Made by a program: the position numbers and the translations under genes. From a virus, in IMG/VR virus record IMGVR_UViG_3300046008_000864, positions 1-44,076 of that record: DNA of 44,076 nt; one strand, written 5' to 3'. Shown in pieces: positions 7,031 to 41,105 of this stretch (position 1 is its first letter; the number at the start of each line of letters is the position of its first letter). The notes beneath the pieces are model-generated. The model was not told the DNA's origin. It saw only the letters and a list, made by a program, of their open reading frames with translations, and did no database searches.

Positions 7031-10000
7031 ATGGCTAACGCGAAAGTTAAACAAACAATTGACGTAGAAGTAGGGCTTGGCAAAGTTGACTACACGGGTA
7101 TTACGAGCAAGATTCAGACGATGCACAATGGCATTGAGCAGTCCTTAAAACAGGCAGCTGTATCTGGTCAAATGAACGTCCCTGTATCCGTAGCGGCTAA
7201 GTTCACGTATAAGCATAATCGTGTAAACATGCACGAAGTTATTGGAGGTGTGCCTCAATCCCAAACGTTTTCACCGCTTATAACTGTAGCCCCAAAGTTT
7301 AAAACAGTAAATCATGATGGCTCCGTCAAGACAATCCGTAAAGCGTTAGGTATTGATGGGGTTAAACTTGCAAGTAAGGAAATGGAGTCAGAGGTCAAAA
7401 GCCTTGAGTCTACATACGGGAAGATTCACAACTTACGCAAAGAGTCAGATAAACTAAAACCAGAGTTTTTCCAAGCGCACTCTGAAATGTCAAACGGTGC
7501 TGACTACAAGAAATTTAATCATGAGTTACAAGTTGGTGCGCTACAAGTCCAAAAATACAAAGAAAATTTAAACGAACTTGAGCGTCAGGCAGTAACTGCG
7601 TCTAAAACATTACACGATTTAGCAGCAAGACAGAATAACGTGCAGAACCTTGTGTATGCACGAGGTGAAAGAACAAGCGCAGGCAAAGCGTTTGACGCAG
7701 CAAAAAATAACCCTAACCTTGATATGGCTGAGATTACCGCAGCCCAAAAAAGATTAGCCAGTGCCAGACAATTAGTAAAAGATCTTGACCAAGTAAATTT
7801 AAAACTAAAGAACTCTGATGCAGTATTATCAACACAGCGTCTTAACGCGATACAACGTACAACAGCGGCGGAAATAACTAGTTTTAGAAGTCAAGTACCC
7901 GCAAGTGTAATCAAGGCTCAAGACTCTTACACGAAAGTGTTGATGGATGCCCAAGCGTTACGGAATGATTCTAAAACACAAGATGCGAAAGTCCTTGAAT
8001 CTGGGATAAAAGAAGCACAAGCGTTAAATGGTCGCATATCGCGCTTAATGACTAATGCCAATGTCACGGACGACCAAAAGACGAAGCTTGCAGATCAACT
8101 GACGAAAAAAGAAGGTTTAATATCATCATACACAGATCGGCTACATGAGGTTAAACACGAGAGTAAAATAGGTACAGATTTTGATAAGCAGATGCGGGAT
8201 TCAGCTGGCATCACAGAAGGTGTTCAGCAGAAACTTGCGAATAAACGTGCATCTGAAGAGGCTAGAAAACGAAACAGTTTAAGCAACTTAGAATCGAATC
8301 TACGCGGCACATCCGAATCAGCCCAGTTACGGGAAAGTGTAAAGCAGGATAAGCTAACGTCACGTGCTACGAGCATACTGCAAGAAACAGATAGCTTAAA
8401 GCGTCTAAGAAAAGAAATCACGGATATGCCACTTGAGGATTTGAAAAACCTCGGCAAGAGGTATAACGAGATTCAGCATAAAATCAAATTATCACCTGCC
8501 AATTTGGGTGACATGAATGATAGACATTTAGCGGATAAAGTAATTGATTTACAAGGTGAATTCAAATCTATTCAAACGTTGGCTCAAAACAGATTAAAGT
8601 TTTTATCACCAACGGAAGGAAGATCAGCATCGCGTGGGGAGCAGGTAAAAGCTGCTGAGGTTAAACTTGGTGAACAATTTATCGCTGAAGGGACTAGATT
8701 TACTTCTCGTCCAAGAGAAGATATGCGTTTTATCAAGGCTGCTTATCGTAATCGGATGGATGAGACATCTGTAGCTCTTTCACAGGAACAACCAGGCTCA
8801 GATAAGCATACCGAGTTGTCACGGAATATGAAAGAGCATGAAGCTGGTTGGAATAAGGCTTCACACGCAGCTAAGGAGTACAGAGGGGTTTTAGGTAAAG
8901 TAGGACATGCCTTTGACACTTTAACGCGCTACGGGGCAGTTGGGGCTATTGTATACAACGTAGCAAATGCTATTAAAGAAGTAGTGTCTTCAGTGATAGC
9001 GCTTGAAGATGAAATGAAGAATATCCAAGCGATTACTTCTTCATCCGATACACAAATGGCTGTGATTAACCAGTCAATAAAAGACACGGCTGTAACAACA
9101 GCATTCAGTATAAAAGAAATTGCTGGGGCGGTGAAAACAGTAGCGCAAGCGGGTGTCGAGATGAAAGACATTCCGAAAACTGTACAAGCGATTGCAGATG
9201 TAGCTACTGCAACTGGGAGTCAGTTACAAACGGCTGCTGACATCATCACCACAGTAAAAGAAGTTTGGGATGGAATTGATGTAAGTACGATTGGTGACAG
9301 GATTACTCAGGCTGTAAACATATCCAAGTTACAGATTGAAGATTTGAAAACCATCTTGTCTTTGAATGCTGCTGCTGCAAAGTCTGCAAATGTATCACTT
9401 GAACAGTCATTATCACTTGATGCTTTGTTAAGAAACTCAGGTGTTAAAGCAAGTACAATTGCAACTGGTTCAACACAGATGTATCGTGAGTTGTTCTCAC
9501 CTGATAAGAAATTTTCTGACTTCTTATCGAGCCAGTATGCGAAAAAAGGTGAAGATGTAACTGCGGAACAAGCATCTAAAAAATTCTCAGATTACCGAAA
9601 TTCAGAAAACCCACTTATTCAAGCTGTTGCTGAGTTAAAACGTATTGGTGTTGGTGACTACAAGTCTATTGCAGAGATGGAAAGGGCTTTAGATTCACGT
9701 GCATTAAATGTGTTTAAACCGCTCTTGAACAGTAAAGAAAGTCTTGCAGGGCTTGAAGCTCAGATGAGAGCAGGAGCAACTGCTGCGGCTGGTGCTGCAA
9801 CAGCGTCACACACTACTAAAAAAGCATTTGAAAACTTAGGTGATCAAGTTGAAGTTCTTGCTGATGCTATTGGTGAGCCTTTCTTAAAACCGCTTACAGC
9901 TGTTATCAACAAGCTGAAAGAATATGCAGGTGATGCTGCGTCTGATTTAACCATTGAGAATTCTAAGGATAAGCGTAACGCTAGGAATTTCAAGGAATTA

Positions 10001-13000
10001 CCAGGCGATGCAAATAACCCCAACCACTCAAGAGATGCTGCGCGAGTAAAGAATTCAAAAGAAGAAGATTATTTTAGAAAAACAGGTGTAGTGATTGGTG
10101 CAGGTATGGCGGACTTGCTTGCACAGCAAACAAAAGGTATGGAGAAACCGACTAAAGAGTTGGAATCCCTAAAGAATTATACTGATTCACCTGATTCACT
10201 TTTGACATACTTCAAGGATTCACAGGCTAAAAAGGACGTACTTAACGCCACAATCGTTGATACAGTTGGAGGTGATAATAGCCAGAAGCTAAGTGAACAG
10301 TTATTACAACAGTTATCGAAAGCAGACCCATCGAAAGATAACAGTGATTTGATTGAACAAATCAAGACACAATTCCGAGGTACAAATAGTGTTTCTTCTG
10401 AGAGTTTTAGTAAACTTGTACTGGGTGCAAAAGAAATAACAGAACCACTAACAGGCACAGTTAAAGGTTTACGCGACCTTTATATGAGTCTCGTTACTTC
10501 AGAAGAAGAGCTTTCTAAATCGGGAAAATTAGAGCTTGAAGCAATATCTGAACTCATTAAAAATCCTGTTTTTAAAGGGGCGATTGTTGACAACAAGGCA
10601 CTAACCCCTGCTCAAGCTGAAGAATTTATTAAGGCGGTACAGGAGAAAGTTGCGCCTGTTGCGAGACAAGCACAAGAAGATTTAAAGACTAAAGCTGCAC
10701 TAAACATCGGGCAACAAACATTAGAAGTTGGAAACAGCGAAAACCCTGATGAAAAGAATGTGTTCACAGCTACTCGGAATGACAACATACGTTCTGCGTT
10801 GGAAGCGAATGGAAAAGAATTTGCAGGTGTTTTAAAAACTCAAATCACAAATCAGGTTAAGGACTATAAATTTTCTCCTGCTGTGGAATCTGCGCTTCTT
10901 CTTGATGCGAATAATCAGATAGAAACAGTATTACAAGAGTTGAATAAAACTGTTTCAGAAAAAGCTGAAGCATTGATTGTTGCTTATACTGATCAGATTT
11001 CCAATTTAGATTTAATCCCTATTGAGAAAAGGGAGCCTGAGCAACAACGTGCAGCTGGTGTTATGTTTACGGAAGTTAAACGTCTTAGTGGAGGGATGAA
11101 AAAACACCAAGACATCGTAAATGAAGCGGCAAGTACCTTGGGTGTTGATCCGTTTGAGATTGCTGCGAGAGGACAGCATGAAAGTAATGGGAATGAAAAA
11201 GCCCAGAACCCAGAACCTGGTTCGTCTGCACGGGGGGTAATGCAGCAGCTAAACATCTCAAGAGAACAAGTTAAACAGTGGGGATATGATAAGCAGTTTG
11301 GTTTTGGTATGGATCCGTTTAATGCTAGGGATAGTATTTTCGGTGGTGCTTCAATCATCAAGGGCTTAACTGAGAAAGAAGGCTTCAAAGATGAACAACA
11401 GCGCCAGCTTGCGTATCATGCAGGACCAGCGTTAGCTCGGGAGTTGATAAAAACTACAGGTGGTGATTTCAACAAATTACCTGAGCCGTTCAATTCTGCA
11501 TTAAAAGAATACAATGCGATGAAGGCTGATTTGATTCGTCAAAATCAAACTCAGGGAAAATTAGATTTACCTGATGCCGAAAAGACTGTTGATTTAAAAG
11601 TATCCCCGAATGTAGCCCACTCGTCTACAATTCTTAAAAATACTAAAGCAGCAGAAGACGCTAGGAAAAAGCAGGTGTACACGGAAGCTAACAGTGTAGA
11701 AATCGAGGCAAGAAGACTCGAAATGACACAGATGCAGCTTGATTTTAAGAATGATAAAAAGAATGACGATAATGATGCAGCAAGAGCTGAGTTTAGTGCA
11801 AAGTTGTATGAAAAACAGTTAGTTGATTTAAACGGTGCTATTGATTGGGCAGAGAACACTCAGGATTTTCCAAAAACCAAAGTAGGACATAAGGCAAGGG
11901 CAGCAGCTATTGCTAAAGCGCAACAAGCAAAGCAAGATGCGGATATAAGCCAAGCTGAAAGCCAGTCTAAGTTAACTAGAACTGATGGGAGAACGCCGTT
12001 TAATGAGAACGATCCTAAGTATGTCGCGTTTAGAAATCAGTCTACTGATGCTGAAATTAAAAAAGCCAATTACATTGCGGAACATGGTGGTTCTTCGGGT
12101 AAACAAGCACAACCGATACTAGACGCTTTTGATGCAGAGAAGAAAGCTGGCGTAGATGGTATGGCAGCTATGAAGCTGGAGCATACCCAAAAATTCAGAA
12201 CCAATGCAAACGAAGAACGTGATGGTTTAGGGACAGATGCAAAGGTCGCAGAATTAAAAAGGCAGCAGGATAAGTCCGATGCAGAATTTGCTCTGACGAA
12301 GAAAAAACGTGAAATAGAAGCTGCTAGAGTTCCGTTTAATGAGTCAGACCCTACTTATAGAAGTCACGAAAAGGCTGCTGTAGACCTTGGCGTTGAAATG
12401 GACAACTTGGCAGCAGCTAATAAACATGACCCTGCTTTAGACTCTAAGGATAAAGAAAGAACTGCCCATATCGTAGCCAACCTTAATGATAAGTTACAGA
12501 AAAGTCTTGCTTATAGCTGGAACGATGTTGAAAAGGAATTAGGGAAAGATACAGCTGAACGTGATGACATCACTGCTAAGATTGCTAAAGAAAATACAGA
12601 TTTAGCTAAACGTATCAAAGAACGCTCGATTGAATCAGTTCTTAAAAATATCCAAACTGAGCTGAAGGTTCTGGATAAAACGATTGAGTTGAATGATACG
12701 AATTCAAAGGTTGCAGAGGACTCAGGAAACTTAACACTGTTCAATGAACTTGAGGCACAGAAAACTAAGTTAGTTGAAGATCGTAGACTCAAGAAAATAG
12801 AAGAAATCAAGGCAAACCCTGACAAAACAAATCAGGCTCAGGATTTGATTGATGCTGCAGATGAAGCGAAGAAAGCGAAAGAAGCCTTGCATGATGTTGG
12901 GTCATTCAATACTTTGGAAGCAGCAAAATTATCTAAAGTAGTTGATAAGCCTATTGAAGGAGCTTCAAGAAAAGGTCGTCAGGACGCATTAGGACATACG

Positions 13001-14794
13001 CAGTACCTTTCAGACCAGAAGGCTCAAAACACACGTGACATGGGTGCACAGCAGGCGAAGTTAGCTGATTACCTTGAAAGAATTTCAACATTACAACCTG
13101 CTGCCCAATCCACGGATATAAACATTAGTGAAAAAGCGAAATTAGACATTGAGCAGTTAGGAAAAGAAGCTGATATTGCGAGAGCAGAAATTGCCAAGCT
13201 GGGTGTTGTGGCTGAGGATCTCGCGCCAACCCTTGCAAATCAATTAGGTCAAATTTCAGCGAGTAACATTGGTGCTGAGATTGATAACCTGAATGGCTCA
13301 TTGAAGAATTTAGATAAGAATCTGACTTCGCGTGCTGTGCAGTTTGCTGATGCTGTATCGGGTGATCTTGCTGATTCTACGATAAAGGCTGCTGAAGGGT
13401 TGCTGGGCTTCAAGATTGCTACGAAAGAAGCCACTGATGCGTTACTAAACGTAATGGATAAGAAAGGTGACTTAGCCCTTTTACAAACAAATCGTATTGA
13501 CCTAGCACAAAAGATTGCATCAGTACGGATGAACGAAGTTGACCCTGTCGCTCAGGAAGCGCAAATAAAAGCCGCCACGGACGCTCAGGTACAAGCGGAG
13601 CAACTAGCTCAGTTCCAAATAAACGAAGCGCAGAAGGCAGCCGACAAGGTTGCATTTAATGAAAGCTTTGCGGGTAAACTCCAGTTAGCGGGAAAAGACT
13701 TAATTGAGGGTGCGGTTAAAGATGTAATCAAAGCGGAAGTGACAGGATTATTCTCTGATGCTTTAGGGTCTGCTCCGACAAAACCTATTTATGCTGAAGT
13801 CACAAACTTCCCAGAAAAAATGGGCGGGACTGGTGCTTCAACGTCTCCCACAGGTTTAATTGGGACTGCGTTTAATAAAGTAAAGTCTTTCTTTACTGAC
13901 ACATCTGGTGGAACAACACCACCTCCGTCAGAAGGACTGATTCAAGATCAAGGAACTGCACCTAGATTTGACAGCACATCAGCATCGGGAGTTACGATTT
14001 CGCCATTGGCTGACCAAACTTCCTCGATTGTTGGTGAATTTACAGACGGTACCTCGATGGCGGGTGGTGGTGGTGCGGCTGTAGATGCACTCGGAACGGC
14101 TGCTGAGACAGGTATTTTCGATGGTATGTCGAAAACTTGGGATGAGACAAAGACGATATTCACAGACTTCACTGACGTAATGGGAGACAAACTTGATGGG
14201 TTTGTCACTGGGTTAGGAGCTACGTTATTCTCAGCATTAGGCGTAAGCAAAAAAGAGTCAACGCTTGATCAGATAAAGAAGTGGACAGGAATTGCTAGTT
14301 CTGTATTAGGTCTTGCAGCAGGAGCTGGTAAAGCCTTTAGTGGGTTAGGCTCGATTGCTGGCGATATAAATATGGAGACATCAACTTTCGATGGACCTGT
14401 TCAGTATAACGCTGCCACGGGTGGTTATATTACTGGTCCTGGCTCAGGTACGTCAGACTCTATTCCTGCTATGTTATCCAATGGTGAATATGTTATTAAA
14501 GCTGACGCGGTTCGGCATATTGGTAAAGATGTTTTGGATAACTGGAACGCTATTTCACGTGCGCCTGTACATCGCGCTACGGGTGGTGCGGTTGGTACAT
14601 TAAGCCCATCCAGATTAGGCTATGCTGCACCAGCTCCAGCACAACAAGCTCCAGCAGGTGATACTAACATTCGAGTAGTCATGGTTGATGACCAACGAAG
14701 AGTTGGTGATTTTATAAATTCTTCAGAAGGTGAAAAAGTGTTAGTAAACTTTATGAAACGTAATAGTACAATGATGAAACAGGTGGTTAAATAA
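7031..14794 (+). CDS. Tail tape measure protein with embedded lytic transglycosylase
   Basis: This 2587-residue protein is the largest in the window. Long charged helices fill residues 100-610. A TP901-type tape measure domain follows at about 625-900, beginning with a hydrophobic stretch (YGAVGAIVYNVANAI) and containing ALEDEMKNIQAITSSS and FSIKEIAGAVKTVAQAGV. A soluble lytic transglycosylase domain lies at about 1355-1500: ARGQHESNG supplies the catalytic Glu (E1384), then SSARGVMQQL and AYHAGP match the family's ARGLMQL and AYNAG motifs. Residues 1530-2200 are coiled coil with a duplicated element (RTPFNENDP and RVPFNESDP). The C-terminus has the SNGEYVI segment common to tape measures. 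It sets tail length, and the transglycosylase probably opens peptidoglycan during DNA entry. Overlap with the next gene is TAATG. Confidence 0.95.
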   Translation: MANAKVKQTIDVEVGLGKVDYTGITSKIQTMHNGIEQSLKQAAVSGQMNVPVSVAAKFTYKHNRVNMHEVIGGVPQSQTFSPLITVAPKFKTVNHDGSVKTIRKALGIDGVKLASKEMESEVKSLESTYGKIHNLRKESDKLKPEFFQAHSEMSNGADYKKFNHELQVGALQVQKYKENLNELERQAVTASKTLHDLAARQNNVQNLVYARGERTSAGKAFDAAKNNPNLDMAEITAAQKRLASARQLVKDLDQVNLKLKNSDAVLSTQRLNAIQRTTAAEITSFRSQVPASVIKAQDSYTKVLMDAQALRNDSKTQDAKVLESGIKEAQALNGRISRLMTNANVTDDQKTKLADQLTKKEGLISSYTDRLHEVKHESKIGTDFDKQMRDSAGITEGVQQKLANKRASEEARKRNSLSNLESNLRGTSESAQLRESVKQDKLTSRATSILQETDSLKRLRKEITDMPLEDLKNLGKRYNEIQHKIKLSPANLGDMNDRHLADKVIDLQGEFKSIQTLAQNRLKFLSPTEGRSASRGEQVKAAEVKLGEQFIAEGTRFTSRPREDMRFIKAAYRNRMDETSVALSQEQPGSDKHTELSRNMKEHEAGWNKASHAAKEYRGVLGKVGHAFDTLTRYGAVGAIVYNVANAIKEVVSSVIALEDEMKNIQAITSSSDTQMAVINQSIKDTAVTTAFSIKEIAGAVKTVAQAGVEMKDIPKTVQAIADVATATGSQLQTAADIITTVKEVWDGIDVSTIGDRITQAVNISKLQIEDLKTILSLNAAAAKSANVSLEQSLSLDALLRNSGVKASTIATGSTQMYRELFSPDKKFSDFLSSQYAKKGEDVTAEQASKKFSDYRNSENPLIQAVAELKRIGVGDYKSIAEMERALDSRALNVFKPLLNSKESLAGLEAQMRAGATAAAGAATASHTTKKAFENLGDQVEVLADAIGEPFLKPLTAVINKLKEYAGDAASDLTIENSKDKRNARNFKELPGDANNPNHSRDAARVKNSKEEDYFRKTGVVIGAGMADLLAQQTKGMEKPTKELESLKNYTDSPDSLLTYFKDSQAKKDVLNATIVDTVGGDNSQKLSEQLLQQLSKADPSKDNSDLIEQIKTQFRGTNSVSSESFSKLVLGAKEITEPLTGTVKGLRDLYMSLVTSEEELSKSGKLELEAISELIKNPVFKGAIVDNKALTPAQAEEFIKAVQEKVAPVARQAQEDLKTKAALNIGQQTLEVGNSENPDEKNVFTATRNDNIRSALEANGKEFAGVLKTQITNQVKDYKFSPAVESALLLDANNQIETVLQELNKTVSEKAEALIVAYTDQISNLDLIPIEKREPEQQRAAGVMFTEVKRLSGGMKKHQDIVNEAASTLGVDPFEIAARGQHESNGNEKAQNPEPGSSARGVMQQLNISREQVKQWGYDKQFGFGMDPFNARDSIFGGASIIKGLTEKEGFKDEQQRQLAYHAGPALARELIKTTGGDFNKLPEPFNSALKEYNAMKADLIRQNQTQGKLDLPDAEKTVDLKVSPNVAHSSTILKNTKAAEDARKKQVYTEANSVEIEARRLEMTQMQLDFKNDKKNDDNDAARAEFSAKLYEKQLVDLNGAIDWAENTQDFPKTKVGHKARAAAIAKAQQAKQDADISQAESQSKLTRTDGRTPFNENDPKYVAFRNQSTDAEIKKANYIAEHGGSSGKQAQPILDAFDAEKKAGVDGMAAMKLEHTQKFRTNANEERDGLGTDAKVAELKRQQDKSDAEFALTKKKREIEAARVPFNESDPTYRSHEKAAVDLGVEMDNLAAANKHDPALDSKDKERTAHIVANLNDKLQKSLAYSWNDVEKELGKDTAERDDITAKIAKENTDLAKRIKERSIESVLKNIQTELKVLDKTIELNDTNSKVAEDSGNLTLFNELEAQKTKLVEDRRLKKIEEIKANPDKTNQAQDLIDAADEAKKAKEALHDVGSFNTLEAAKLSKVVDKPIEGASRKGRQDALGHTQYLSDQKAQNTRDMGAQQAKLADYLERISTLQPAAQSTDINISEKAKLDIEQLGKEADIARAEIAKLGVVAEDLAPTLANQLGQISASNIGAEIDNLNGSLKNLDKNLTSRAVQFADAVSGDLADSTIKAAEGLLGFKIATKEATDALLNVMDKKGDLALLQTNRIDLAQKIASVRMNEVDPVAQEAQIKAATDAQVQAEQLAQFQINEAQKAADKVAFNESFAGKLQLAGKDLIEGAVKDVIKAEVTGLFSDALGSAPTKPIYAEVTNFPEKMGGTGASTSPTGLIGTAFNKVKSFFTDTSGGTTPPPSEGLIQDQGTAPRFDSTSASGVTISPLADQTSSIVGEFTDGTSMAGGGGAAVDALGTAAETGIFDGMSKTWDETKTIFTDFTDVMGDKLDGFVTGLGATLFSALGVSKKESTLDQIKKWTGIASSVLGLAAGAGKAFSGLGSIAGDINMETSTFDGPVQYNAATGGYITGPGSGTSDSIPAMLSNGEYVIKADAVRHIGKDVLDNWNAISRAPVHRATGGAVGTLSPSRLGYAAPAPAQQAPAGDTNIRVVMVDDQRRVGDFINSSEGEKVLVNFMKRNSTMMKQVVK

Positions 14795-16201: not shown

Positions 16202-17536
16202 ATGAGTACAATAACCTTTAGCCCGTTTAAAGAAAATACATCCGCAGCAGGGCAATTCAGTCTTGATTCTGATGTAATTTTAGTCGGGGATGTATTTTAC
16301 AACAACATGTCCGAAGGTAGTGTTGGTATTCCAGGCTGGACAGCAGAACTAATCATCGCAGATACTCCGAGTACAGCAACACTGAGAGTGTATCCTGGTC
16401 CAGGCAGACCCGTGGGGCTTATAACTGGGAATGTAACTTTAGATTTCTTAACTTCTGATGCATTTTATATAGGTGAATTACCTATAGATATTCCTGTCTC
16501 CTTAGCATTTTCTGTTGATGTTAGCGTGTACGTCCCTCCCGTATCTAATTTACCTGTATCGCCTGCAACATCTACAACTTTAGCTAGTAACGCCTTGTTT
16601 CTTGAGTATGAAAAATCAGCTGTCAATGAGCCAATCGATGCTTACGAGTTTTCATACGGTGGGGTAGGGTTTGAAGAAGGATTATTATTCTATCGTTACA
16701 CATCGGGTAATTTTCTTGTAAAAATAAATGGGAATGTCTATGCACCTGAACTGATTAGACGATCAGAACTCAGGCAAACAACGGATATTTCAAAAGGGCA
16801 GTTAACACTCACTGTATCAAAGAATAATGATATAGCGAAGATGTTCATAGCAGGTACGCCATCTACTGTTATTTTCGTCAGGTCATACAGAGGATTTGTT
16901 AATAAGAATGGTGACTACGATTTTATTGTTCAGTATCACGGTAGAGTTAGTGCCTGTTCTTTTACTGGGTTTGAAGCGTCAATCGACTGTGATTCGCTTT
17001 ATGTGTCTATAAAACGTCTTGGGTTACGTCAATACTATGAAACAAGTTGCTGCCATGCTTTATATGACATGTCATCTTGTAAATTAGCGAGAAGCACAAA
17101 GGCTAACTTAGTGATGGATTACACGCTGAATTCATATAGAAATAGCTTGGAGATACGGGATGCTGGCGTGGTAGCCCAACCAGCAGAAACTACGGCTCGT
17201 CAAGCAGGAACTAATTTGTTAAACCCTGTTCTTGATGGAACTACAGGCGAAGTCGTATCATCTGGAACTGGCTGGTTTACAGGTGGGATGTTAGAACTCC
17301 CCGATAAAACGCTCCATATGGTCTCATCTCATACGAAAGAATCTGGTGTAGTAGTAATTCACTTAGTCAGGTCTATCCCTGTAGCCCAGCTTGTTGAGGG
17401 TAATTTGAAAATATACCCAGGCTGTGATCACACGACTGTAACTTGCTCCAAATTAGGAAACATTCTTAATTTTGGTGGATTCCCTTGGTTAACACCATCA
17501 AATCCGTTTGAAGGTACACATGTACCTATGGGTTAA
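16202..17536 (+). CDS. Tail hub protein, DUF2163/BR0599 type with Fe-S cysteines
   Basis: This 444-residue protein starts one base after the previous stop. The part from about residue 140 on matches the DUF2163/BR0599 family: a beta-barrel section with a YEFSYGG start, then Cys284-x8-Cys293 (CHALYDMSSC) and Cys408-x6-Cys415 (CDHTTVTC), followed by NFGGFPWL near the end. The C-x8-C and C-x6-C spacings equal those of the lambda gpL Fe-S cluster, though here the two pairs are 114 residues apart, as expected for a domain inserted between them. The first 140 residues are an added beta-rich domain. It probably links the distal tail ring to the central hub. The next gene begins two bases later. Confidence 0.8.
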   Translation: MSTITFSPFKENTSAAGQFSLDSDVILVGDVFYNNMSEGSVGIPGWTAELIIADTPSTATLRVYPGPGRPVGLITGNVTLDFLTSDAFYIGELPIDIPVSLAFSVDVSVYVPPVSNLPVSPATSTTLASNALFLEYEKSAVNEPIDAYEFSYGGVGFEEGLLFYRYTSGNFLVKINGNVYAPELIRRSELRQTTDISKGQLTLTVSKNNDIAKMFIAGTPSTVIFVRSYRGFVNKNGDYDFIVQYHGRVSACSFTGFEASIDCDSLYVSIKRLGLRQYYETSCCHALYDMSSCKLARSTKANLVMDYTLNSYRNSLEIRDAGVVAQPAETTARQAGTNLLNPVLDGTTGEVVSSGTGWFTGGMLELPDKTLHMVSSHTKESGVVVIHLVRSIPVAQLVEGNLKIYPGCDHTTVTCSKLGNILNFGGFPWLTPSNPFEGTHVPMG

Positions 17537-30300: not shown

Positions 30301-32413
30301 TATTTACACGTCCGCCACAGAAGTTACCGCAATAACTCTTAAATTAACAACAACGTCTCCAGACTTTGTTTGGGGTTTTTTGGAGTACCCCTCTTCAACT
30401 AGCATTGCAGAAACAGATGTGACAGCTCCATTCGGCGTAGTAACCGAAAAAAGCATATTTAACGAGCCAACAATTGCCTCGTTTGAGGTTCAAGGAACCT
30501 ACGGAAAGTTTATATTTGAAAGATATGCCTACTCGATAAATGACATCTTGCTTGAAGGGTGCGAAGTTTACATATCCCAGATACTGTACCGCTACGCAGT
30601 TGTGGGATACAAAACACAATTTGCAAAAGAGGGGGTTTACTATGAGATTAAAAAACTCCCCAAATATGCCTATAAAGTTACGTACAGCCTAGCGGATTAC
30701 GATGTTACGCAATTGTTTGGAGGGGAAAAGTATATAGACACTTTATTTATTGGTGGTGAAAGCGCATCAATGGAAATCACAGGGGCATTGACGATTGGAG
30801 AAATAACAGATTTATCTCTTAATAATTCTGAAATATCTTTCACTTACGACCCTGGTGGGAGGCTCTACGGGTTTGGCGATCTGTATAACTTGGTTGTTGG
30901 GTGGCTTCCGAGTAATACATGGCGTTTAACAAGAAGCGGACTTGAAACGTGGTCAAGTAACTACGCTTCAGCTAATTACACTCTGTCAGGTAATTTTATT
31001 CACTCCAACCCCGACAATACCACTATAACCTTTGTAGAACAGACGACAGAGTCTTACATGGGAGATTTTACTGTATTTGAAAACGGGTACTGGGAGTTTA
31101 AGTTTTACACCCCAACATACCGCCCAGACAGAATAAAGCTCGACCAACGAGAACATTGTATATTCACCGTTACTACTGTCCAGGACAGTGTTAGCGCAAC
31201 GCTGTTTTGTGATATACTCGCCCCTACTTTTCCAATGGAACTTGTATTAACTGGAAGTCTTTTCGGAAGTTCTTCAGCGACATATTTAAAACAAAAAGAT
31301 GACTTAATACTTTCTGGGAAAATAACTCCTCACGACTACGGCGCAACTTCATACACTTTTGCCTACGCCACAGGTGCACCCAATGGGATAGCAGACTACT
31401 CAACACCTGTTACTTCAGAGGGTCTAACGGTAACAAAAGTTGGGGACGGTCCGAACAACCCTAGTTATAGTTTATCGCTGCAAAATGACGGAAGCTGGCA
31501 AGTTACCATACCTATGGCGCAGTACAAATACTCCGTCAGCGGAAGCAATTTCATTGCGGTTGGATACGTCTGGATTTCTTCTTTGGCGAGTAATGGTACA
31601 AATTCAAGTTTTAAATACGTCAGACTGTATTTTTACGTTTCAGGCTACGATATGCCAACAGAAACTGTAAGCTCTGTGGGCGTATACGCTATTTTAGAAG
31701 GAAATTCACCTCAAACAACAAGCGGGGTTATCACCTATTTTGACTATGAATTTGGGGTACCCAGTGTTTCTAGTAAAAACATATTAGGGGTATACGGAAC
31801 CTTTAGCTATTACATCGAACACCAGCTAGAAAACAGGGGGACGGCTTATTGGAGTTATACAACGGAAGATTCTGTTGAGTCATTGGTAGAAGGTCAAACA
31901 GTTACAGAAATCTTCAGTATCCGAAGCTACAGTGGGACTGTGTTGAGTGTTGTTAGCATTGATGTAACTGGAACAGGGGAGGTGGCTGTTGTTTCTAACC
32001 CCCAGTCAATAGCGGCTTATCGCTCATCTATTTTTTACAAAACTGGAAAGTTACAAAATGTTGTTGACGCGGACTTGGGTGAAAATAAGTATGTACCTCA
32101 ATTTCAAACCCAGGGGACTTATGGCTTATTCAGTGTTGACGAGAATGGGGATTGGAGTTACTCCGCAAACTTTGAATCTGCCTTTTCGCAAAACGGGGTG
32201 CTTATAACCGAAACCTTTACTGTTAGCTCACACGATGGGTCAGCGTCAACAACAATCACTATAGACATTATTGATGACACGGTAATTTATGAACCGTATA
32301 CACTACTCACGGCAAGCAAACTTGGTGGTGTGGTTATTGACTCTAACGACCCTGTTGATGGGGATTATTTAATCGCTACCTCTGCTACAAGCGCAGAATG
32401 GACAACTTTATGA
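27311..32413 (+). CDS. Giant tail fibre/adhesin with VCBS-like repeats
   Basis: This 1700-residue protein has a short N-terminal module, a helical region with a coiled coil at about 375-425 (ALRYELEKEQEAKDLL), and a long beta-rich remainder. VCBS/cadherin-like signatures recur about every 200-300 residues: YGTFSITEYGAYTYEI (about 474-489), NGLFTILPNGKWVCEF (about 775-790), YGKFIFERYAYSI (about 1064-1076), MGDFTVFENGYWEFKF (about 1250-1265), and YGLFSVDENGDWSY (about 1603-1616). The known consensus is GxYG-x-L/F-x(3)-DG-x-[WY]-x-Y. The end, YLIATSATSAEW, matches a motif in the next protein. A side fibre or adhesin that spans to the host surface is the best guess. TGA overlaps the next ATG. Confidence 0.65.
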   Translation: MESTISLDVNILNSDGFSGDEKKTAQDLIVDGSLGTKIGIVAINDYIPDTPPDPPAVPKVYVYSSAADMVSLANQTSIASIVEDAIGSTINSYDRLIAEANTSHQALSGLSTVVEPGGVSIRTNIAYFGFKNSGDLSSFVSSIGITTGIVVSVTNILFASVSDADLFVAKEREYRWSLIAKIEKLDFLVKSATLNTPSISEDSLQYAYTRKFLRTTDKEIDYKKKDGALCFEIDYFMNLSMVYYAYVCGQMPLDASYAYETVAAPDPQDPKKLIITPMFFEDDYEVEGNHVTLRCTRSGFITIRISTQAQRDAFANNDIVVPGVTRINEESFYIWLKKLPALPITLFVNLKMMNIDEIPEIAAVFGKTTGITTSDPRYQAALRYELEKEQEAKDLLDFKMQQLDMYNRMKAELAEVKLKADSAYYLSRVSGYDQYAEDIINTGSIIATIFRLEAGNNLDLQTSITPIVNQQVSYGTFSITEYGAYTYEITSPPTGDVGANVSIPIKLSATTPSGQTKELWENLRFYVFKYEPKAQTETLPEITLNLSMSSKDGKIQILSNHSKMNGTLTGRDVKFELVSGQPLYGTISKTETVRSKLDEYLSLALSGGVKDVIDGVDFVINKASIRHLRQGTSVTISDILVNRVREDITTKYIPVDENVISGYMEVATGYSQSIDNLEFDGTVTTWGIADKTVWEMRPLYTTRPVSWKATTTKTTIQPYRVNLTIVKETKAILETVVTEPVFYDSFFAQGDLSYLDEGEGYQVSYIPVNNYDVENGLFTILPNGKWVCEFDPVRMQGIDSGDTKTLSIPVKYTIDGEISPTDRVVTIRIIGADNIDTTNLSVVLKNLEASQIHTPSYNELDSTILTGKFLAKRNNEVVSPEMVYIPFSYESYYPSFYFEFSNTAGVYSAYYSFGGDPFVTVNAVSVLGKLNDGTVVPDSYITFYFRPYFKYKQDQVWECRLNEVAKNSDLPIGTEIYYEIPVGLKRLTGINSTLHSPIYTSATEVTAITLKLTTTSPDFVWGFLEYPSSTSIAETDVTAPFGVVTEKSIFNEPTIASFEVQGTYGKFIFERYAYSINDILLEGCEVYISQILYRYAVVGYKTQFAKEGVYYEIKKLPKYAYKVTYSLADYDVTQLFGGEKYIDTLFIGGESASMEITGALTIGEITDLSLNNSEISFTYDPGGRLYGFGDLYNLVVGWLPSNTWRLTRSGLETWSSNYASANYTLSGNFIHSNPDNTTITFVEQTTESYMGDFTVFENGYWEFKFYTPTYRPDRIKLDQREHCIFTVTTVQDSVSATLFCDILAPTFPMELVLTGSLFGSSSATYLKQKDDLILSGKITPHDYGATSYTFAYATGAPNGIADYSTPVTSEGLTVTKVGDGPNNPSYSLSLQNDGSWQVTIPMAQYKYSVSGSNFIAVGYVWISSLASNGTNSSFKYVRLYFYVSGYDMPTETVSSVGVYAILEGNSPQTTSGVITYFDYEFGVPSVSSKNILGVYGTFSYYIEHQLENRGTAYWSYTTEDSVESLVEGQTVTEIFSIRSYSGTVLSVVSIDVTGTGEVAVVSNPQSIAAYRSSIFYKTGKLQNVVDADLGENKYVPQFQTQGTYGLFSVDENGDWSYSANFESAFSQNGVLITETFTVSSHDGSASTTITIDIIDDTVIYEPYTLLTASKLGGVVIDSNDPVDGDYLIATSATSAEWTTL

Positions 32414-34128
32414 CAGAAATTTTAGGAACAGCCGTAAGACTTAAAACGGCAACGGGTGTGATTGACATATCAACAATAGCACCGCCGATGGCAGGTCAAG
32501 TATTGAGAGCAACCAGCGCAACTACTGCGGTGTGGGCTAATCCGCCGACAGCTTTTATACCTGGAACTGGAACTGGAACTGGCGGTGGGGCTTGGACAAG
32601 ACCAGCAGAATGGCTGCCACTTGCCGAAATTACAGAAGGCTTCTCTGGGCTGTTCGAGGTGATACCTGCAAACAGTGTTTGCTGCTTTCCGCTAATACCA
32701 TGCGATTGCACGATTGATTGGGGTGACGGTAATACAGAGACTTTTGCTTCTGGGACCTACGCGATTCACAATTATACTTTTGCGTCTATTTCAAATGCAG
32801 CGCTATCAAGTGGCAACAAGCAAGTAGTGGTAACAATGACTCCAACAGTTGCTGGAGGGTTTATTGATTTAGACTTGGGAAAATATCTTGATGCAGCATC
32901 GCCAGCATTCTATGTTGCGAGAAAATCACGAGTTCGGTGGTTGGATATAAGATTTGGCGGTCCAGGATTTACTTGCCAGTCAGCATCTCAGCTTGGAGCA
33001 TCATTTATCGCCTTGTCGAGTATTGAGTTGATAAATACCGCACCTAGCCTGACTAAAATGCCGAATATGTTTAGAGGTGGACTTATAAAATATGCAAAAG
33101 TAAATGCACCTTATGTCACAGACATGAGTCAGGCTTTTTATGTGGCTGGCTTTTTGGAAAAGATAGATATTGTTGCTCTAGGCGTTGTTACAAACATGAG
33201 CCAGTGTTTTTATAGATGCAATTTATTACCAGAGTTGCCACTGATAGATACCAGTGCAGTTACTAATTTCTATGGTGCTTTCCAATACTGCGTAACGATA
33301 AAGACTATTCCAGAATCGTACACAACAGCAGCAGCTACGGATGTGGGTTCGATTGTTAGCGACTGTTACAACCTAGAAGCTGTTCCTGTTTGGAATTTGA
33401 ATAGCTTGGCATATAGTGCGTATGGCGTTGGTGAGTACGGTTTAGATAAGATAACTAGCTTTGTTGTGTTAAATCTAAAACGCTCAATAAGTATTTCTGA
33501 CTTTAATTGGAACAAAGCGCAAGTTGAGTGGTTCATTACCAATTGTCTTATAGCATCAACATTCAGTCCGAAATTAACAACCAACGGGAAGTTTGTCGCT
33601 CCAACCGTTATGAAGCGAGCTGTTACAGTGTCTGGGTCTCAAGATATTACTGTTTCTGACAGTACGGGACTTGCTGTGGGAATGAAGATAGTCGGCGCAT
33701 ACGCAAGTAGCTTTTCTGCTTCATTACAAGCCTCTGGAAATAACCGCTTTGTGAATCCAACAAGCAGCACGATTACAATTCTTGGATACGGGACTAGATT
33801 GCTGCCAATAGCCTCGTCAAACCCATTTGCATCCAACTCAGGAATGCAGTTGTTTAAAATAACAAGCAAGTCAAGTAATGACGGAAGTGGGGGTTTTTAC
33901 ACGCAAGATTACTACCCAGTGGCTACAGCAGGGACGGTGGTAGAGTTTGCATTGGACATTATTAACACAAGTGTGTCTGGAATCATCACTGCCATAAACG
34001 GCAATACTGTTACGTTAGACACTACTCAAACAGTTAGTGGTGTATTCGGGGTGGGTTTCAAATCTCAAGACACTACAGCCTACATTGACGAATCACTCGC
34101 CACTGCAAAAGGCTGGACTGTTGTGTAA
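32410..34128 (+). CDS. Tail protein with PKD-like segment and BspA/DUF285-type repeats
   Basis: ATG at 32410 forms an ATGA overlap with the upstream stop and gives 572 residues; an in-frame ATG at 32398 would add four. Residues 22-35 (PMAGQVLRATSATTAV) mirror the end of the upstream fibre. A Gly/Thr linker from a CTGGAA repeat follows. CTIDWGDGNTETF (about 100-112) is the signature of PKD-type or surface-layer beta domains. Residues 215-320 carry BspA/DUF285-like repeats (VTDMSQAFYVAGFLEKIDIV, VTNMSQCFYRCNLLPELPLI, VTNFYGAFQYC), a leucine-rich-repeat variant frequent in surface adhesins. The C-terminal region is beta-rich with a possible knob. A receptor-binding role is inferred. No later overlap; a 48-bp gap with a promoter candidate follows. 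Confidence 0.65.
   Translation: MTEILGTAVRLKTATGVIDISTIAPPMAGQVLRATSATTAVWANPPTAFIPGTGTGTGGGAWTRPAEWLPLAEITEGFSGLFEVIPANSVCCFPLIPCDCTIDWGDGNTETFASGTYAIHNYTFASISNAALSSGNKQVVVTMTPTVAGGFIDLDLGKYLDAASPAFYVARKSRVRWLDIRFGGPGFTCQSASQLGASFIALSSIELINTAPSLTKMPNMFRGGLIKYAKVNAPYVTDMSQAFYVAGFLEKIDIVALGVVTNMSQCFYRCNLLPELPLIDTSAVTNFYGAFQYCVTIKTIPESYTTAAATDVGSIVSDCYNLEAVPVWNLNSLAYSAYGVGEYGLDKITSFVVLNLKRSISISDFNWNKAQVEWFITNCLIASTFSPKLTTNGKFVAPTVMKRAVTVSGSQDITVSDSTGLAVGMKIVGAYASSFSASLQASGNNRFVNPTSSTITILGYGTRLLPIASSNPFASNSGMQLFKITSKSSNDGSGGFYTQDYYPVATAGTVVEFALDIINTSVSGIITAINGNTVTLDTTQTVSGVFGVGFKSQDTTAYIDESLATAKGWTVV
32561..32582 (+). repeat. CTGGAA tandem repeat in a Gly/Thr linker
   Basis: CTGGAA occurs three times followed by CTGG, encoding a (Gly-Thr)n linker. 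The 6-bp unit keeps frame on gain or loss, so linker length can vary. Confidence 0.8.
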
Positions 34129-34176: not shown

Positions 34177-34584
34177 ATGCAAGTATTAGATCTAAGACCG
34201 CCAAACATTACAATTAAGTTCACCAAGGGTGCAACTTTAAACCCGATCTTTTTCTACTTAGGCAAGAATAACTCTGTTATTGATATGACAGGATACACTG
34301 CTCAGTTCCAGGCAAGGTTAAACCCTACAGCTGAAGAAGTGTTACCAGGATTTGATTTAACCACTGTAAATGGTGGACTTGTCATTGTTACTGCTGATGC
34401 TGAAGATGCAAAAGGTATTATGATCCCACAAGCTCAGGGTGTGCAGTTGAATGTTCCTAGTTCTGTTACTTCTGCAATTGCGTTCCGCAAAGCAATCTTT
34501 GGTCTCGAGGTAACTTCGCCTAATGGGATCACCAGCACTCTTGTTGTTGGGATTCTCGAGCCAAACTTAGAGGTTGTGCGGTGA
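34177..34584 (+). CDS. Small tail/baseplate beta protein
   Basis: ATG at 34177 follows AAGGAG (34164-34169). The 135-residue product begins with ITIKFTKGATLNPIFFYLGK and then IDMTGYTAQFQARLNP, a pattern well known from small phage tail proteins related to the BppU N-terminal or fibre-adaptor domain (F-x-x-G-x-T...DLTGYxx-x-x-x-R). It is beta-rich throughout. Such proteins generally anchor fibre or collagen-like linkers. The stop overlaps the next start by four bases (GTGA), implying translational coupling to the collagen-like gene. Confidence 0.6.
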   Translation: MQVLDLRPPNITIKFTKGATLNPIFFYLGKNNSVIDMTGYTAQFQARLNPTAEEVLPGFDLTTVNGGLVIVTADAEDAKGIMIPQAQGVQLNVPSSVTSAIAFRKAIFGLEVTSPNGITSTLVVGILEPNLEVVR

Positions 34585-34997
34585 CAGACACTTATTTGGT
34601 CTATGCTCAGAATGCCGTAACCAACATTGTTGCTAAAGGCAGCGGTGAATTTGCTGCAAGCAATGGCTCAAATAATATCAACATCATTGCAACCCCTGGC
34701 AATGAAAATGTAGTTACGATTGGCGTACAAGGTCCAGCAGGACCTTCAGGTTCAGTAGGTCCTTCGGGTCCAGCAGGACCTGCTGGAGAGTCTAACCTTT
34801 CAGGTCTTCGTAAGGTTTCAATACCCTTACAGACAGGAATTTTGGATTATGTACTGGACGATGTTGCTGTCGGAGTAGTATTGGCATTCGTCAATGGTAT
34901 AGAAACATCAACTTCGATAGACGGCGTAAACATACACATTGATGACTTAACACCTGGAGAGGTTGACAACTCGGATATTCTAACAATTTATTACTAA
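34581..34997 (+). CDS. Collagen-like tail fibre linker protein
   Basis: GTG at 34581 overlaps the previous stop. The 138-residue product has an N-terminal beta region, a GXY collagen-like block at about residues 51-69 (GPAGPSGSVGPSGPAGPAG), and a C-terminal beta module (LDYVLDDVAVGVVLAFVNGI...) of the type that caps phage fibres. Collagen-like triplets in phages build trimeric shafts and often mark sites where fibre ends are swapped. The C-terminal module may be a trimeric knob or docking domain for the following proteins. Confidence 0.75.
   Translation: MTDTYLVYAQNAVTNIVAKGSGEFAASNGSNNINIIATPGNENVVTIGVQGPAGPSGSVGPSGPAGPAGESNLSGLRKVSIPLQTGILDYVLDDVAVGVVLAFVNGIETSTSIDGVNIHIDDLTPGEVDNSDILTIYY
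34731..34781 (+). repeat. Duplicated palindromic 15-mer in the collagen-like block
   Basis: GGTCCAGCAGGACCT is repeated exactly at 34731-34745 and 34767-34781. Each copy contains GGTCC-AGCA-GGACC, a perfect 5-bp hairpin. The repeats offer homology for recombination within or between phages. Confidence 0.8.
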
Positions 34998-38786: not shown

Positions 38787-39386
38787 TTAATCCTCGCTAG
38801 TCTGCTTCACGCTTTGCAAACAATTTTCAAGTATCTCGATTGCTTCAGCTTTTTCAAACTGATGCACAATGTTAATGACTTTCTTTTCAGCCTGATTCTT
38901 GTTTATAGATTTCTGTGTTGTTTTCAACTCAGGAATACCTTTTGTTTTTAGAATGATTTGCTTAACTTCTTCGACTGGTAAGTCTTGACCTTGTACGATT
39001 GAATAAACTACTTCTGCAATATCTTCATTGGCTGGTGAAGCGATTAGATACCCTGCTGTCAATGAAATCCCTGTTGCATCCCTATCTTTGAAGAATTTAG
39101 CATAGTGCATAAGTCTGCTACGATTCATTCTGCTGTCACATAATGTTACAGTAGCCTCAACCCATTGCCCAAATTCCTTGTCAGATGCAAAGCGATTTCT
39201 TGCTTCTAACAAGATCAACCCTTTCATCATATGCGATTGTATGTCAACTTGGGAATACCGATCAGCCAACTCTTCCAAGGATAAGTCAGCCAACGTAGTC
39301 TTTTGTGATGACTGCACAAAATCAACTGCACCTGATGCAAGTTTAGCGTCTTTAAACACCTGTGGTTCTCTGGCTCTTAAAACCAT
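38787..39386 (-). CDS. DUF3102-like ParA partner (ParB-type role)
   Basis: The 199-residue product is encoded right after ParA, overlapping it by ten bases with AAGGAG inside the parA end, so the two are co-translated. Key residues are SLEELADRY (36-44), MKGLILLEAR (54-63) and DKEFGQW (69-75), matching the protein encoded at 1156-1869 without gaps over this stretch. The L-x-AR...EFGxW pattern fits DUF3102. It lacks the classic ParB/Srx (GExR) box and any obvious ParB helix-turn-helix signature. In a type I system the partner would bind the centromere and stimulate ParA. That role is inferred from place, size and overlap. The gene ends three bases before the terminator stem. Confidence 0.75.
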   Translation of the reverse strand: MVLRAREPQVFKDAKLASGAVDFVQSSQKTTLADLSLEELADRYSQVDIQSHMMKGLILLEARNRFASDKEFGQWVEATVTLCDSRMNRSRLMHYAKFFKDRDATGISLTAGYLIASPANEDIAEVVYSIVQGQDLPVEEVKQIILKTKGIPELKTTQKSINKNQAEKKVINIVHQFEKAEAIEILENCLQSVKQTSED

Positions 39387-40000
39387 GTAAATATCTCCTT
39401 ACAAACGTTTGTCATTTCTAATGTTGCTTTCGGATCTTTCATTTCAATCACACCCAAACCATAACCTAGAGCGTCCCTGTAGGACCTACGTTCATAAATT
39501 ATTGATTCTAAAGGAGTTAATGAGTCTTCATAAGCTAATAAGGCTTCTCTTGCTTCTTTTGTTTCTGTTGATGAACTTGGCGATTGAGTAAGCACACAAT
39601 ATGACTTTAGCTTCTTGTTGTAGACCCTAGAAGTAGCAATCAATGAAATTACTTTCGGGAGTGTGTCTAAATCGGCTTGTGAGGGGCGAACTGGTGAAAT
39701 GAATATGTCTGCCACCATCAGCCCAGAACGAAGCTCTACGGAGTCCCTACCAGGACAATCTACAACAACGTATTCAAACTTGCTGTTAAGTGTTTCTAAA
39801 GCTGACTGAATATCTTCGTGTTTAGAGACGCATTCAACACCTGATTCTTTTCTGTCTTGAGACCAAGTGGAGCTTGTACCTTGACGATCAGCATCAACAA
39901 GAATGACTTCCTTGCCTGCTTTTGCCAAAAAGACAGAAATGTTAGTTGCCATAGTTGATTTACCGACTCCACCTTTTTCACTACCGACGATTATTATCAT
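39377..40000 (-). CDS. parA: ParA-type partition ATPase
   Basis: A 207-residue ParA/MinD-type ATPase. The deviant Walker A is VGSEKGGVGKSTMATN, with the signature lysine K9 and the P-loop lysine K14. Walker A' is VDADRQG (D38), and Walker B-like VVVDCPG lies at about residue 77-83. The short N-terminus without helix-turn-helix is the type Ib form, in which the partner, not ParA, carries DNA binding. It moves plasmid copies or regulates its own operon through the partner. ATG at 40000 has GGAG eight bases upstream and a candidate promoter (TTGCAT/TAGCGT). It diverges from the rep gene, with the iteron origin between them. Strong evidence for low-copy plasmid maintenance. Confidence 0.95.
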   Translation of the reverse strand: MIIIVGSEKGGVGKSTMATNISVFLAKAGKEVILVDADRQGTSSTWSQDRKESGVECVSKHEDIQSALETLNSKFEYVVVDCPGRDSVELRSGLMVADIFISPVRPSQADLDTLPKVISLIATSRVYNKKLKSYCVLTQSPSSSTETKEAREALLAYEDSLTPLESIIYERRSYRDALGYGLGVIEMKDPKATLEMTNVCKEIFTWF

Positions 40001-40262: not shown

Positions 40263-40290
40263 ACAATAATAATTTTGTCTGTAGGGGATA
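40255..40290 (+). promoter_or_regulatory. 11-bp inverted repeat, candidate rep operator
   Basis: TATCCCCTACA (40255-40265) and TGTAGGGGATA (40280-40290) are perfect reverse complements with a 14-base AT-rich spacer containing AATAAT-like -10 sequence. The left arm overlaps the last iteron and shares its CTACA, and the right arm ends two bases before the rep ATG. This is the classic arrangement for Rep dimer autorepression. Confidence 0.8.
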
Positions 40291-40292
40291 AA

Positions 40293-41105
40293 ATGCCGCA
40301 CATACCGCCCATAGAAAAGCTCGTGGTAGTTAAACACAATGACTTGATCGATGCTGCCCAACAACTTTCCGTGCTTGAAAGCAGGATTATTTTGACTTGT
40401 ATCTCCCGCGTCAACTCAAAAGAAGTGTTGGACCCAAGCATTAAATTTGTCCTGTCTGTTGAGGACATCAAAGACCTTGTTGGTGTGGGAGGGAGAAGTG
40501 CGTATGAGAACCTACGCGATGCGGTGAACAGGTTAGCTGAACGCTGGGTTGTTCTGTTAAAGCCATCCAAAAGAATTTCAGAAAGAAAAATACGCTGGGT
40601 TTCTGAAATTGCGTATATACCAACAGAGGGGGTTATTGAATTATTCTTCACACCAAGCATTTCAAACCTGCTAAGTGACATTACAAAAAACTTCACTCAG
40701 TACAAACTCGAGAATGTGCTTGGGTTCAAATGTATCTACAGCATAAGATTCTACGAGCTGTTCAAACGATGGGGAGGAACAGGAAAGGAGATTGACCTTG
40801 AAGATTTGCAAGAACTGTTAGAACTAGGTGATAAGTATGCTAGGTGGGATAACTTCAAGGCAAAGGTCCTAATCCCAGTGGTAAAGGACATCAATGAAAC
40901 ATCTGATGTGAAAGTGAGTTGGGATCAAGTACATCGTGGGAAGAGGGTGAGCGGTATAATCTTTGCTTATTCTTTACCGAAGAAAGTCACCACGCAAAAG
41001 AAAGCCCCAACAAGTAAACCTGCTGAGGCTAAAAGTGACTTGTCCCACAAAGAAGAACTAGTGAGACGATTCGGAGAGGACATTGTGAAGAAGTACAAAA
41101 TGTGA
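40293..41105 (+). CDS. Rep_3-family plasmid replication initiator
   Basis: The product (270 residues from ATG 40293) matches the Rep_3/RepB initiator family: VVKHNDLIDAAQQLSVLESR and IILTCISRVN near the start, the first winged-helix domain to about 120, then TKNFTQYKLENVLGFKCIYS and IRFYELFKRW (about 135-165), the signature of the second winged helix (Y-x-L...K-x-x-YSxRxYELL). The C-terminal tail is Lys/Ala-rich. ATG at 40293 follows AGGGG in the operator arm. TTG at 40275 is in frame but lies in the operator spacer and is not preferred. It binds the four iterons as monomer and represses its own promoter as dimer by family precedent. The gene faces away from parA and converges with nrdB. Confidence 0.95.
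   Translation: MPHIPPIEKLVVVKHNDLIDAAQQLSVLESRIILTCISRVNSKEVLDPSIKFVLSVEDIKDLVGVGGRSAYENLRDAVNRLAERWVVLLKPSKRISERKIRWVSEIAYIPTEGVIELFFTPSISNLLSDITKNFTQYKLENVLGFKCIYSIRFYELFKRWGGTGKEIDLEDLQELLELGDKYARWDNFKAKVLIPVVKDINETSDVKVSWDQVHRGKRVSGIIFAYSLPKKVTTQKKAPTSKPAEAKSDLSHKEELVRRFGEDIVKKYKM

What the first reader, a model, noticed from the sequence alone, without database searches (positions are those of the whole stretch)
32410..34128. BspA/DUF285-type repeats in a phage tail protein
VTxMSQxFYxxxxL repeats with a WGDGN (PKD-like) segment are typical of surface adhesins of bacteria and of protists, and unusual as a phage tail component. A flexible Gly-Thr linker precedes them. A host surface target is likely.
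Basis: partly seen in the sequence, partly recalled or inferred. Interest (0 to 1): 0.5.

Follow-up and report, generated by a model that had tools for sequence, protein, structure and literature searches.

The report
Leucine-rich-repeat tail protein of a phage
A phage tail gene carries a short leucine-rich-repeat array of the kind found in bacterial adhesins; it belongs to a common phage tail-protein family and probably helps the phage stick to its host, though no functional test of it was found.

Summary
Gene 32410-34128 (+) encodes 572 aa: connector, Gly-Thr linker, WGDG beta domain, five ~24-aa DUF285 (BspA/TpLRR-type) repeats, and a C-cap interrupted by a ~160-aa insert. Pfam alone puts DUF285 just under its cut-off (23.4 of 25 bits). 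Profiles from relatives settle it: 98.5 bits for the WGDG domain (best of 200 shuffles 4.7), 82.3 bits for the repeats (best of 500 shuffles 7.6). 'Unusual in a phage' is wrong: 42 distinct IMG/VR ORFs share the WGDG-type domain and the repeats, and one of them matches 77 of 50,697 GenBank phage records, duplicates and 8 unverified Listeria contigs included. The gene follows tape-measure and tail-tip genes and precedes a collagen-like gene. Best explanation (0.6): a tail-fibre-tip adhesin whose LRR face binds the host surface. Binding is inferred. Support: in seven pairs of relatives the LRR is less conserved than the N-terminal part in six and level in one; in one close pair the changes cluster on six positions per repeat and central repeats look exchanged. 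Known kind, new divergent member.

The parts
32410..34128 (+). whole gene, 572 aa, WGDG + DUF285-type LRR tail protein
32410..32559 (+). aa 1-50, N-terminal connector with GQVLRATSATTAVW, a motif also at the C-end of the upstream tail protein (GDYLIATSATSAEW)
   Evidence: docking role is inference; pLDDT under 50
32560..32589 (+). aa 51-60, PGTGTGTGGG flexible linker
   Evidence: sequence
32590..33024 (+). aa 61-205, WxRPxxWL...WGDG beta domain shared by the phage family
   Evidence: profile of 14 relatives 98.5 bits v 4.7 best of 200 shuffles; AF2 mean pLDDT 83 for aa 56-222
32719..32733 (+). aa 104-108, WGDGN motif
   Evidence: its two glycines are invariant in all 36 rows of A5
33049..33414 (+). 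aa 214-335, five DUF285/TpLRR-type repeats
   Evidence: Pfam 5.3e-5, under cut-off; repeat profile 82.3 bits; LRR fold matches
33484..33606 (+). aa 359-399, first half of the LRR C-cap (QVEWFITN...KLTTNGKFVAPT)
   Evidence: alignment with relatives
33607..34089 (+). aa 400-560, insert in the C-cap, at the same place as inserts in five relatives
   Evidence: 17.6 bits v 5.6 best of 200 shuffles; no Pfam hit, no GenBank phage hit
34090..34125 (+). aa 561-572, ESLATAKGWTVV, second half of the C-cap
   Evidence: 24 of 31 relatives with a complete 3' end finish in ATxK[GN]W plus a few residues
27311..32413 (+). upstream 1700-aa protein with VCBS repeats, overlapping the LRR gene by 4 nt
   Evidence: NCBIfam VCBS 1.2e-32, 5 stretches
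34177..34584 (+). downstream 135-aa protein, phrog_1084 (unknown function, 7.6e-10); similar ORFs in three DUF285 loci at E <= 1e-4 (L104, L046, L112) and two weaker ones (L087, L109)
34581..34997 (+). downstream collagen-like protein
   Evidence: Pfam Collagen under cut-off, tail-fibre PHROGs 1e-5
7031..14794 (+). tape measure protein (PhageMin_Tail, SLT)
16202..17536 (+). tail-tip protein (Phage_BR0599 8.2e-12)
   Evidence: matches 447 of 50,697 phage records

Best explanation
The protein is a tail-fibre-tip (or tail-tip) adhesin of a tailed phage, possibly a phage-plasmid. Its N-terminal ~50 aa and the neighbouring fibre-like proteins fix it to the tail, the Gly-Thr linker gives reach, the WGDG domain caps a short DUF285-type leucine-rich-repeat solenoid, and the solenoid's variable face binds a molecule on the host surface. 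The C-cap insert is an accessory domain. Shown: architecture, homology to a phage family, predicted LRR fold, location in a tail gene cluster, faster change of the repeats in relatives. Inferred: presence in the virion, docking by the N-terminus, binding, and the ligand.
For: Tail-gene context. Homology to 42 distinct IMG/VR ORFs with N-domain over 100 bits, all 42 with the repeat motif. Their nearest neighbours lie on the same strand in 110 of 125 cases; of 111 of 112 neighbours scanned, 197 PHROGs match, 25 are listed, and of the 15 listed with a description 14 are tail or collagen-like tail families and one a virion structural protein (these families overlap, and the most frequent, phrog_1276 with 17 members, has no description). 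In Klebsiella phage ST16-OXA48phi5.4 the repeats are fused behind Tail_P2_I and Big_2, two genes before the tail collar fibre gene. Fold: 6mlx TpLRR Z 12.7, and 4fs7, 4cp6, 4fdw, 4fd0 at Z 12.3-10.9; BFVD ranks 1 and 3 are phage '26-residue repeat' proteins. In 7 pairs of relatives the LRR is less conserved than the N part in 6 and level in 1 (54.8 v 55.0%), and less than the C part in 6 of 7 (L051 is in two pairs). In L063/L108, 41 of 58 LRR residue changes fall on 6 of 24 repeat positions. BspA binds fibronectin and fibrinogen (PMC2843621, passages).
Against: No experiment seen here tests a phage DUF285 protein. The window's own units share only 29-50% DNA identity, so the variability results come from relatives. 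In one of the 7 pairs the C part changes faster than the LRR. Raised silent differences in the L063/L108 array (pS 0.214 v 0.039 and 0.018) point to recombination and do not by themselves show selection. The host is unknown, and the close-relative scan of viral contigs found only a second contig of the same virus. The VCBS, collagen-like and unassigned neighbours are other candidate receptor binders.
Confidence: 0.6

Rival explanations
1. The protein is a tail subunit whose LRR packs against other tail proteins (spacer or bracket), not a receptor binder.
For: It is not the last gene of the cluster: at least five further genes on the same strand follow, one collagen-like. In contig L007 the S-CBWM1-type homologue lies beside genes that look by eye like T4-like portal, protease and capsid genes, not fibres.
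Against: A packing protein should not have its repeats as the fastest-changing part.
Confidence: 0.2
2. It is a decoration that sticks the particle to mucus, extracellular polymers or particles and raises encounter rate, not a specific host receptor binder.
For: VCBS, PKD and Big_2 domains nearby or in relatives suit adhesive decorations (recalled); cellular BspA binds extracellular-matrix proteins (PMC2843621, passages).
Against: Repeat-level variability between close relatives fits a changing specific target better.
Confidence: 0.15
3. A bacterial surface-protein gene caught by misassembly or a recent stray transfer into the phage.
For: DUF285 is described mainly from cellular proteins (PMC2996958, passages).
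Against: A second contig carries the same region, 17,715 of 17,716 bases identical; 4-nt overlap with the upstream tail gene; N-domain and C-terminus shared with ORFs of viral contigs.
Confidence: 0.03

Closest known systems
IMG/VR family of ORFs found here (L085, L106, L102, L066 etc.)
   Same: WxRPxxWL/WGDG-type N-domain, DUF285 repeats, mostly an ATxKGW C-terminus (24 of 31 complete 3' ends); five share the C-cap insert position
   Different: 23-31% identity to the window protein; up to 14 regular 24-aa units v 5 degenerate ones; 17 of 42 have a ~108-aa partner gene upstream that none of the ten window proteins tested matches
[quoted passage not shown]
   Same: best structural matches of the model in the viral library (4.9e-13 and 5.5e-9)
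   Different: longer (697 and 974 aa), 22-23% identity; their own domain order was not examined
Synechococcus phage S-CBWM1 gp104 (putative tail protein)
   Same: WGDG domain (Pfam PKD) followed by DUF285 repeats, near a collagen-like fibre gene
   Different: no WxRPxxWL segment and no C-cap insert by eye; 25% identity over 44% of the query
Sphingomonas phage PAU gp103
   Same: two WGDG motifs, each ahead of DUF285 arrays
   Different: 1857 aa with 16 DUF285 stretches
Klebsiella phage ST16-OXA48phi5.4 gp35 (tail protein I)
   Same: DUF285/LRR_5 in a tail protein
   Different: repeats fused behind Tail_P2_I and Big_2
BspA / TpLRR bacterial adhesins
   Same: repeat unit and LRR fold (6mlx Z 12.7)
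   Different: cellular surface proteins; the window protein shows no signal peptide by eye and lies in a tail gene cluster

Membership tests
DUF285 / BspA-type (TpLRR) repeat proteins | Pfam PF03382 match over the curated cut-off by the protein alone | tested here: not met
   23.4 bits v 25; the six IMG/VR relatives tested score 138-262 bits
DUF285 / BspA-type (TpLRR) repeat proteins | tandem ~23-26-aa units with VTxMxxMFxxCxxL core | tested here: met
   five units, spacings 22, 24, 24, 25; 82.3 bits to relatives' repeat profile v 7.6 best of 500 shuffles
DUF285 / BspA-type (TpLRR) repeat proteins | LRR solenoid fold | tested here: met
   AF2 block pLDDT 81-94 for aa 231-330; best PDB chain 6mlx Z 12.7, rmsd 3.6, 204 aligned. 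The tool warns that for repeats Z under about 13 may mean only a common arrangement; Foldseek itself gave no match at E <= 0.001
DUF285 / BspA-type (TpLRR) repeat proteins | signal peptide and cell-surface anchoring (cellular BspA adhesins) | tested here: inconclusive
   by eye only: no hydrophobic N-terminal segment; no predictor was run
phage WxRPxxWL-WGDG-DUF285 family (defined here) | N-domain homology along its length | tested here: met
   98.5 bits, best of 200 shuffles 4.7; the 14 seeds were chosen by the WxRPxxWL motif, which the window shares
phage WxRPxxWL-WGDG-DUF285 family (defined here) | C-terminal ATxKGW cap, with or without insert | tested here: met
   the feature itself is present in 24 of 31 relatives with complete 3' ends
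PKD domain (PF00801) | Pfam profile match | tested here: not met
   no hit for the window; hit for the S-CBWM1 relative
PKD domain (PF00801) | PKD fold | tested here: inconclusive
   a PKD structure (4xed) at rank 41, E 0.17; no Z of 5 or more in the second look
phage tail component | gene inside the tail gene cluster | tested here: met
phage tail component | protein present in virions | not testable with these tools
   needs proteomics
phage receptor-binding protein | binds host surface and is needed for adsorption | not testable with these tools
   needs binding and deletion tests

The most novel reading that the evidence does not exclude
Phages use DUF285 leucine-rich-repeat arrays as exchangeable recognition modules, in the manner of vertebrate variable lymphocyte receptors (comparison recalled): a WGDG cap and a C-cap enclose 24-aa (72-bp) units whose six variable positions form the binding face, and new specificities arise by recombination among units within the gene. 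The window protein would be a short, aged member.
Probability: 0.3. Interest if true: 0.6.

Novelty: new member of a known kind. Interest (0 to 1): 0.3.

Why it matters
It links a repeat family known mainly from bacterial and protist adhesins to a common class of phage tail proteins for which I found no functional test, and gives them a shared domain plan (connector, WGDG cap, LRR array, C-cap with optional insert). If the LRR face is the receptor binder, its repeat units offer a readable and testable code for phage host specificity.

Tried and rejected
Chance match: rejected by shuffle controls. Misassembly: rejected by a second contig. 'Unusual in phages': rejected. Diversity-generating retroelement as the source of variation: in the one pair tested only 35 of 120 substitutions start from A, so no adenine signature. 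Host assignment failed: a Rep-protein scan of genome contigs gave 81 pattern matches and no relative (a second scan was allowed and not used); Terminase_6N was not found in the 70-kb record of the same virus. PDB sequence search: best E 0.062. The insert alone had no Pfam or GenBank phage match. FCCH identity of the relatives' inserts: one hit in L037, E 0.079, under cut-off, left open. PARCEL palindromes (PMC2996958, passages) were not tested in the window DNA. The N-domain's fold is unassigned.

Literature searches: DUF285 + phage; BspA + leucine-rich repeat + tail fiber (13); 'BspA family leucine-rich repeat' + phage (61); leucine-rich repeat + receptor binding protein + bacteriophage + tail + PKD (62, no paper); leucine-rich repeat, tail fiber, phage, DUF285, three of four (79); BspA + fibronectin + leucine-rich repeat + Tannerella (87). 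In these listings, and in passages of PMC7765460 (DUF285 annotations of Vibrio phage pir03 ORF200 and ORF287), PMC2996958 and PMC2843621, I saw no functional test of a phage DUF285 protein. No paper was read whole.

Of the 120, L064, L079, L082 and L098 gave no ORF with the motif; the other 116 collapsed to 110 distinct. Of 47 strong profile hits 42 are distinct; the 14 seeds or their duplicates are among them. Only 30 of the 42 have WGDG letter for letter, 40 have it or a variant. Eight of the 12 GenBank records are unverified, unannotated Listeria phage contigs that may hold bacterial DNA; the other four are duplicate records of two phages. Segment borders and units were set by a regular expression, so only its free positions are informative. 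In one search the pairs L025/L070 (4 of 8 units flagged) and L016/L051 (6 of 9) have different unit numbers and low identity, so they say little. One neighbour over 1200 aa was left out. Alignment A4 was not used further.

Full report
What is there. Gene 32410-34128 (+) encodes 572 aa; its ATG overlaps the stop of the upstream gene by four bases. It reads: connector (aa 1-50), Gly-Thr linker (51-60), WxRPxxWL...WGDGN beta domain (61-205), five ~24-aa leucine-rich repeats (214-335), a C-cap (359-399 plus 561-572) and, between the two halves of that cap, an insert of ~160 aa (400-560).

Is it DUF285? Pfam says almost: 23.4 bits with a cut-off of 25. PHROGs and NCBIfam list nothing. Relatives decide it. 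A profile of the N-domain from 14 of these scored the window protein 98.5 bits, with 4.7 for the best of 200 shuffles. A profile of repeats from 12 relatives scored the window repeats 82.3 bits, with 7.6 for the best of 500 shuffles. The six IMG/VR relatives tested in Pfam carry DUF285 at 138-262 bits. So the repeats are DUF285-type units that have drifted below the Pfam threshold.

The family. Among 2185 ORFs of the fetched loci, 84 distinct ones match the N-domain profile at E <= 1e-3 (its end overlaps the repeats) and 42 of these exceed 100 bits (the 14 seeds or their duplicates are among them). All 42 hold the repeat motif, 40 have WGDG or a variant (30 exactly), and of 31 with a complete 3' end 24 finish in ATxK[GN]W plus a few residues. 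The window ends LATAKGWTVV. In five relatives (L102, L066, L037, L026, L061) an insert interrupts the cap at the same place as in the window and begins with a similar stretch (17.6 bits v 5.6 for the best of 200 shuffles).

Context. Upstream lie a tape measure protein with PhageMin_Tail and SLT, a Phage_BR0599 protein, a protein with a sub-threshold Phage-tail_3 match and a 1700-aa protein with VCBS repeats. Downstream lie a phrog_1084 protein and a collagen-like protein; the first has similar ORFs in three DUF285 loci at E <= 1e-4 and two weaker ones. For the 42 family loci 110 of 125 nearest neighbours are on the same strand. Of 111 of 112 neighbours scanned, 197 PHROGs match and 25 are listed; of the 15 listed with a description 14 are tail or collagen-like tail families. 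In GenBank, relative L085 matches 77 of 50,697 phage records and L106 matches 49, duplicates and 8 unverified Listeria contigs included; names include 'tail protein', 'tail protein I', 'putative tail protein' and 'BspA family leucine rich repeat surface protein', many are hypothetical. In Klebsiella phage ST16-OXA48phi5.4 the repeats are fused to Tail_P2_I. One counter-case is contig L007, where the homologue sits beside genes that look by eye like portal, protease and capsid genes.

Structure. The full-length model is good only for aa 61-150 (block pLDDT 82-96) and 211-330 (74-94); its mean is 60 and the insert is under 50. Foldseek gave no PDB match at E <= 0.001, its best rows being bacterial LRR proteins. 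The second look gave 6mlx TpLRR Z 12.7 (rmsd 3.6, 204 aligned), 4fs7 12.3, 4cp6 11.8, 4fdw 11.7, 4fd0 10.9. Against viral predicted structures 13 match at E <= 1e-3, among them phage 26-residue-repeat, PKD and BspA proteins. The N-domain alone folds well (pLDDT 83) but has no convincing PDB match, so PKD membership is left open.

Function. Cellular BspA binds fibronectin and fibrinogen (PMC2843621, passages). In seven pairs of related phage proteins (one protein used twice) the LRR has lower identity than the N part in six and level identity in one, and lower than the C part in six of seven. For L063/L108 the identities are 96.7 (N), 81.4 (LRR) and 98.8 (C). Silent differences rise as well (pS 0.214 in the LRR v 0.039 and 0.018), which points to recombination more than to selection on point changes; 41 of the 58 residue changes fall on six positions per unit. 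Across 195 units of the 42 proteins the most variable positions are 11, 8, 5, 14, 9 and 4, five of them among those six. In L063/L108 eight of 13 units match their counterpart best or nearly so, and five central ones (6-10 of 0-12) match another unit better by more than 4 points. This is what one expects of a recognition face that changes by unit exchange. The window's own units are too diverged (29-50% DNA identity) to show it, and the other two pairs tested are too diverged to judge.

Verdict. The most likely role is a tail-fibre-tip adhesin (0.6). A packing role or a general sticky decoration remain possible. What is added here is the domain plan of the family and the pattern of repeat change, the latter resting on few pairs.

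Noticed in passing
window 39377-40000 (-), 40275-41105 (+): ParA-type ATPase and a Rep_3 plasmid initiator (Rep3_N 1.8e-33) beside the tail cluster: the virus may be a phage-plasmid.
   Followed up: partly
window 32360-32401 and 32494-32535: The motif GxxLxATSATxAxW occurs at the C-end of the VCBS protein and again near the N-terminus of the LRR protein; possibly a shared docking segment. A stricter form was found in none of the 2185 ORFs of the other loci.
   Followed up: partly
17 of 42 family loci, e.g. L085:8518-8841, L083:4632-4955, L051:4474-4797: A conserved ~108-aa gene (MATxYKVLGQSNPAATTxTTLYTVPA...) lies 0-9 nt upstream of the DUF285 gene; 38 of the 42 have a complete 5' end. None of ten window proteins matches it; the L085 copy has no Pfam hit.
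   Followed up: partly
A5 columns 101-170; C-terminal parts of L066, L037, L102, L026, L061: By eye, a similar insert (HGxxxGxxVxF...TFQV...GG) sits in a loop of the N-domain in 12 of the 42 relatives (by pattern) and in the C-cap of others: perhaps an exchangeable insert domain.
   Followed up: partly
L063:297-2021 v L108:1617-3341: Close relatives in which five central 72-bp units match a non-cognate unit better than their counterpart: unit exchange inside the array.
   Followed up: partly
window 41195-42211 (-): Ribonucleotide reductase small chain in the phage (1.2e-62).
   Followed up: no
window 1156-1869 (+) and 38787-39386 (-): Two proteins that look alike by eye; the first has a weak DUF3102 match (E 0.069).
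   Followed up: no
window 7031-14794 (+): The tape measure protein carries an SLT transglycosylase domain (4e-6).
   Followed up: no
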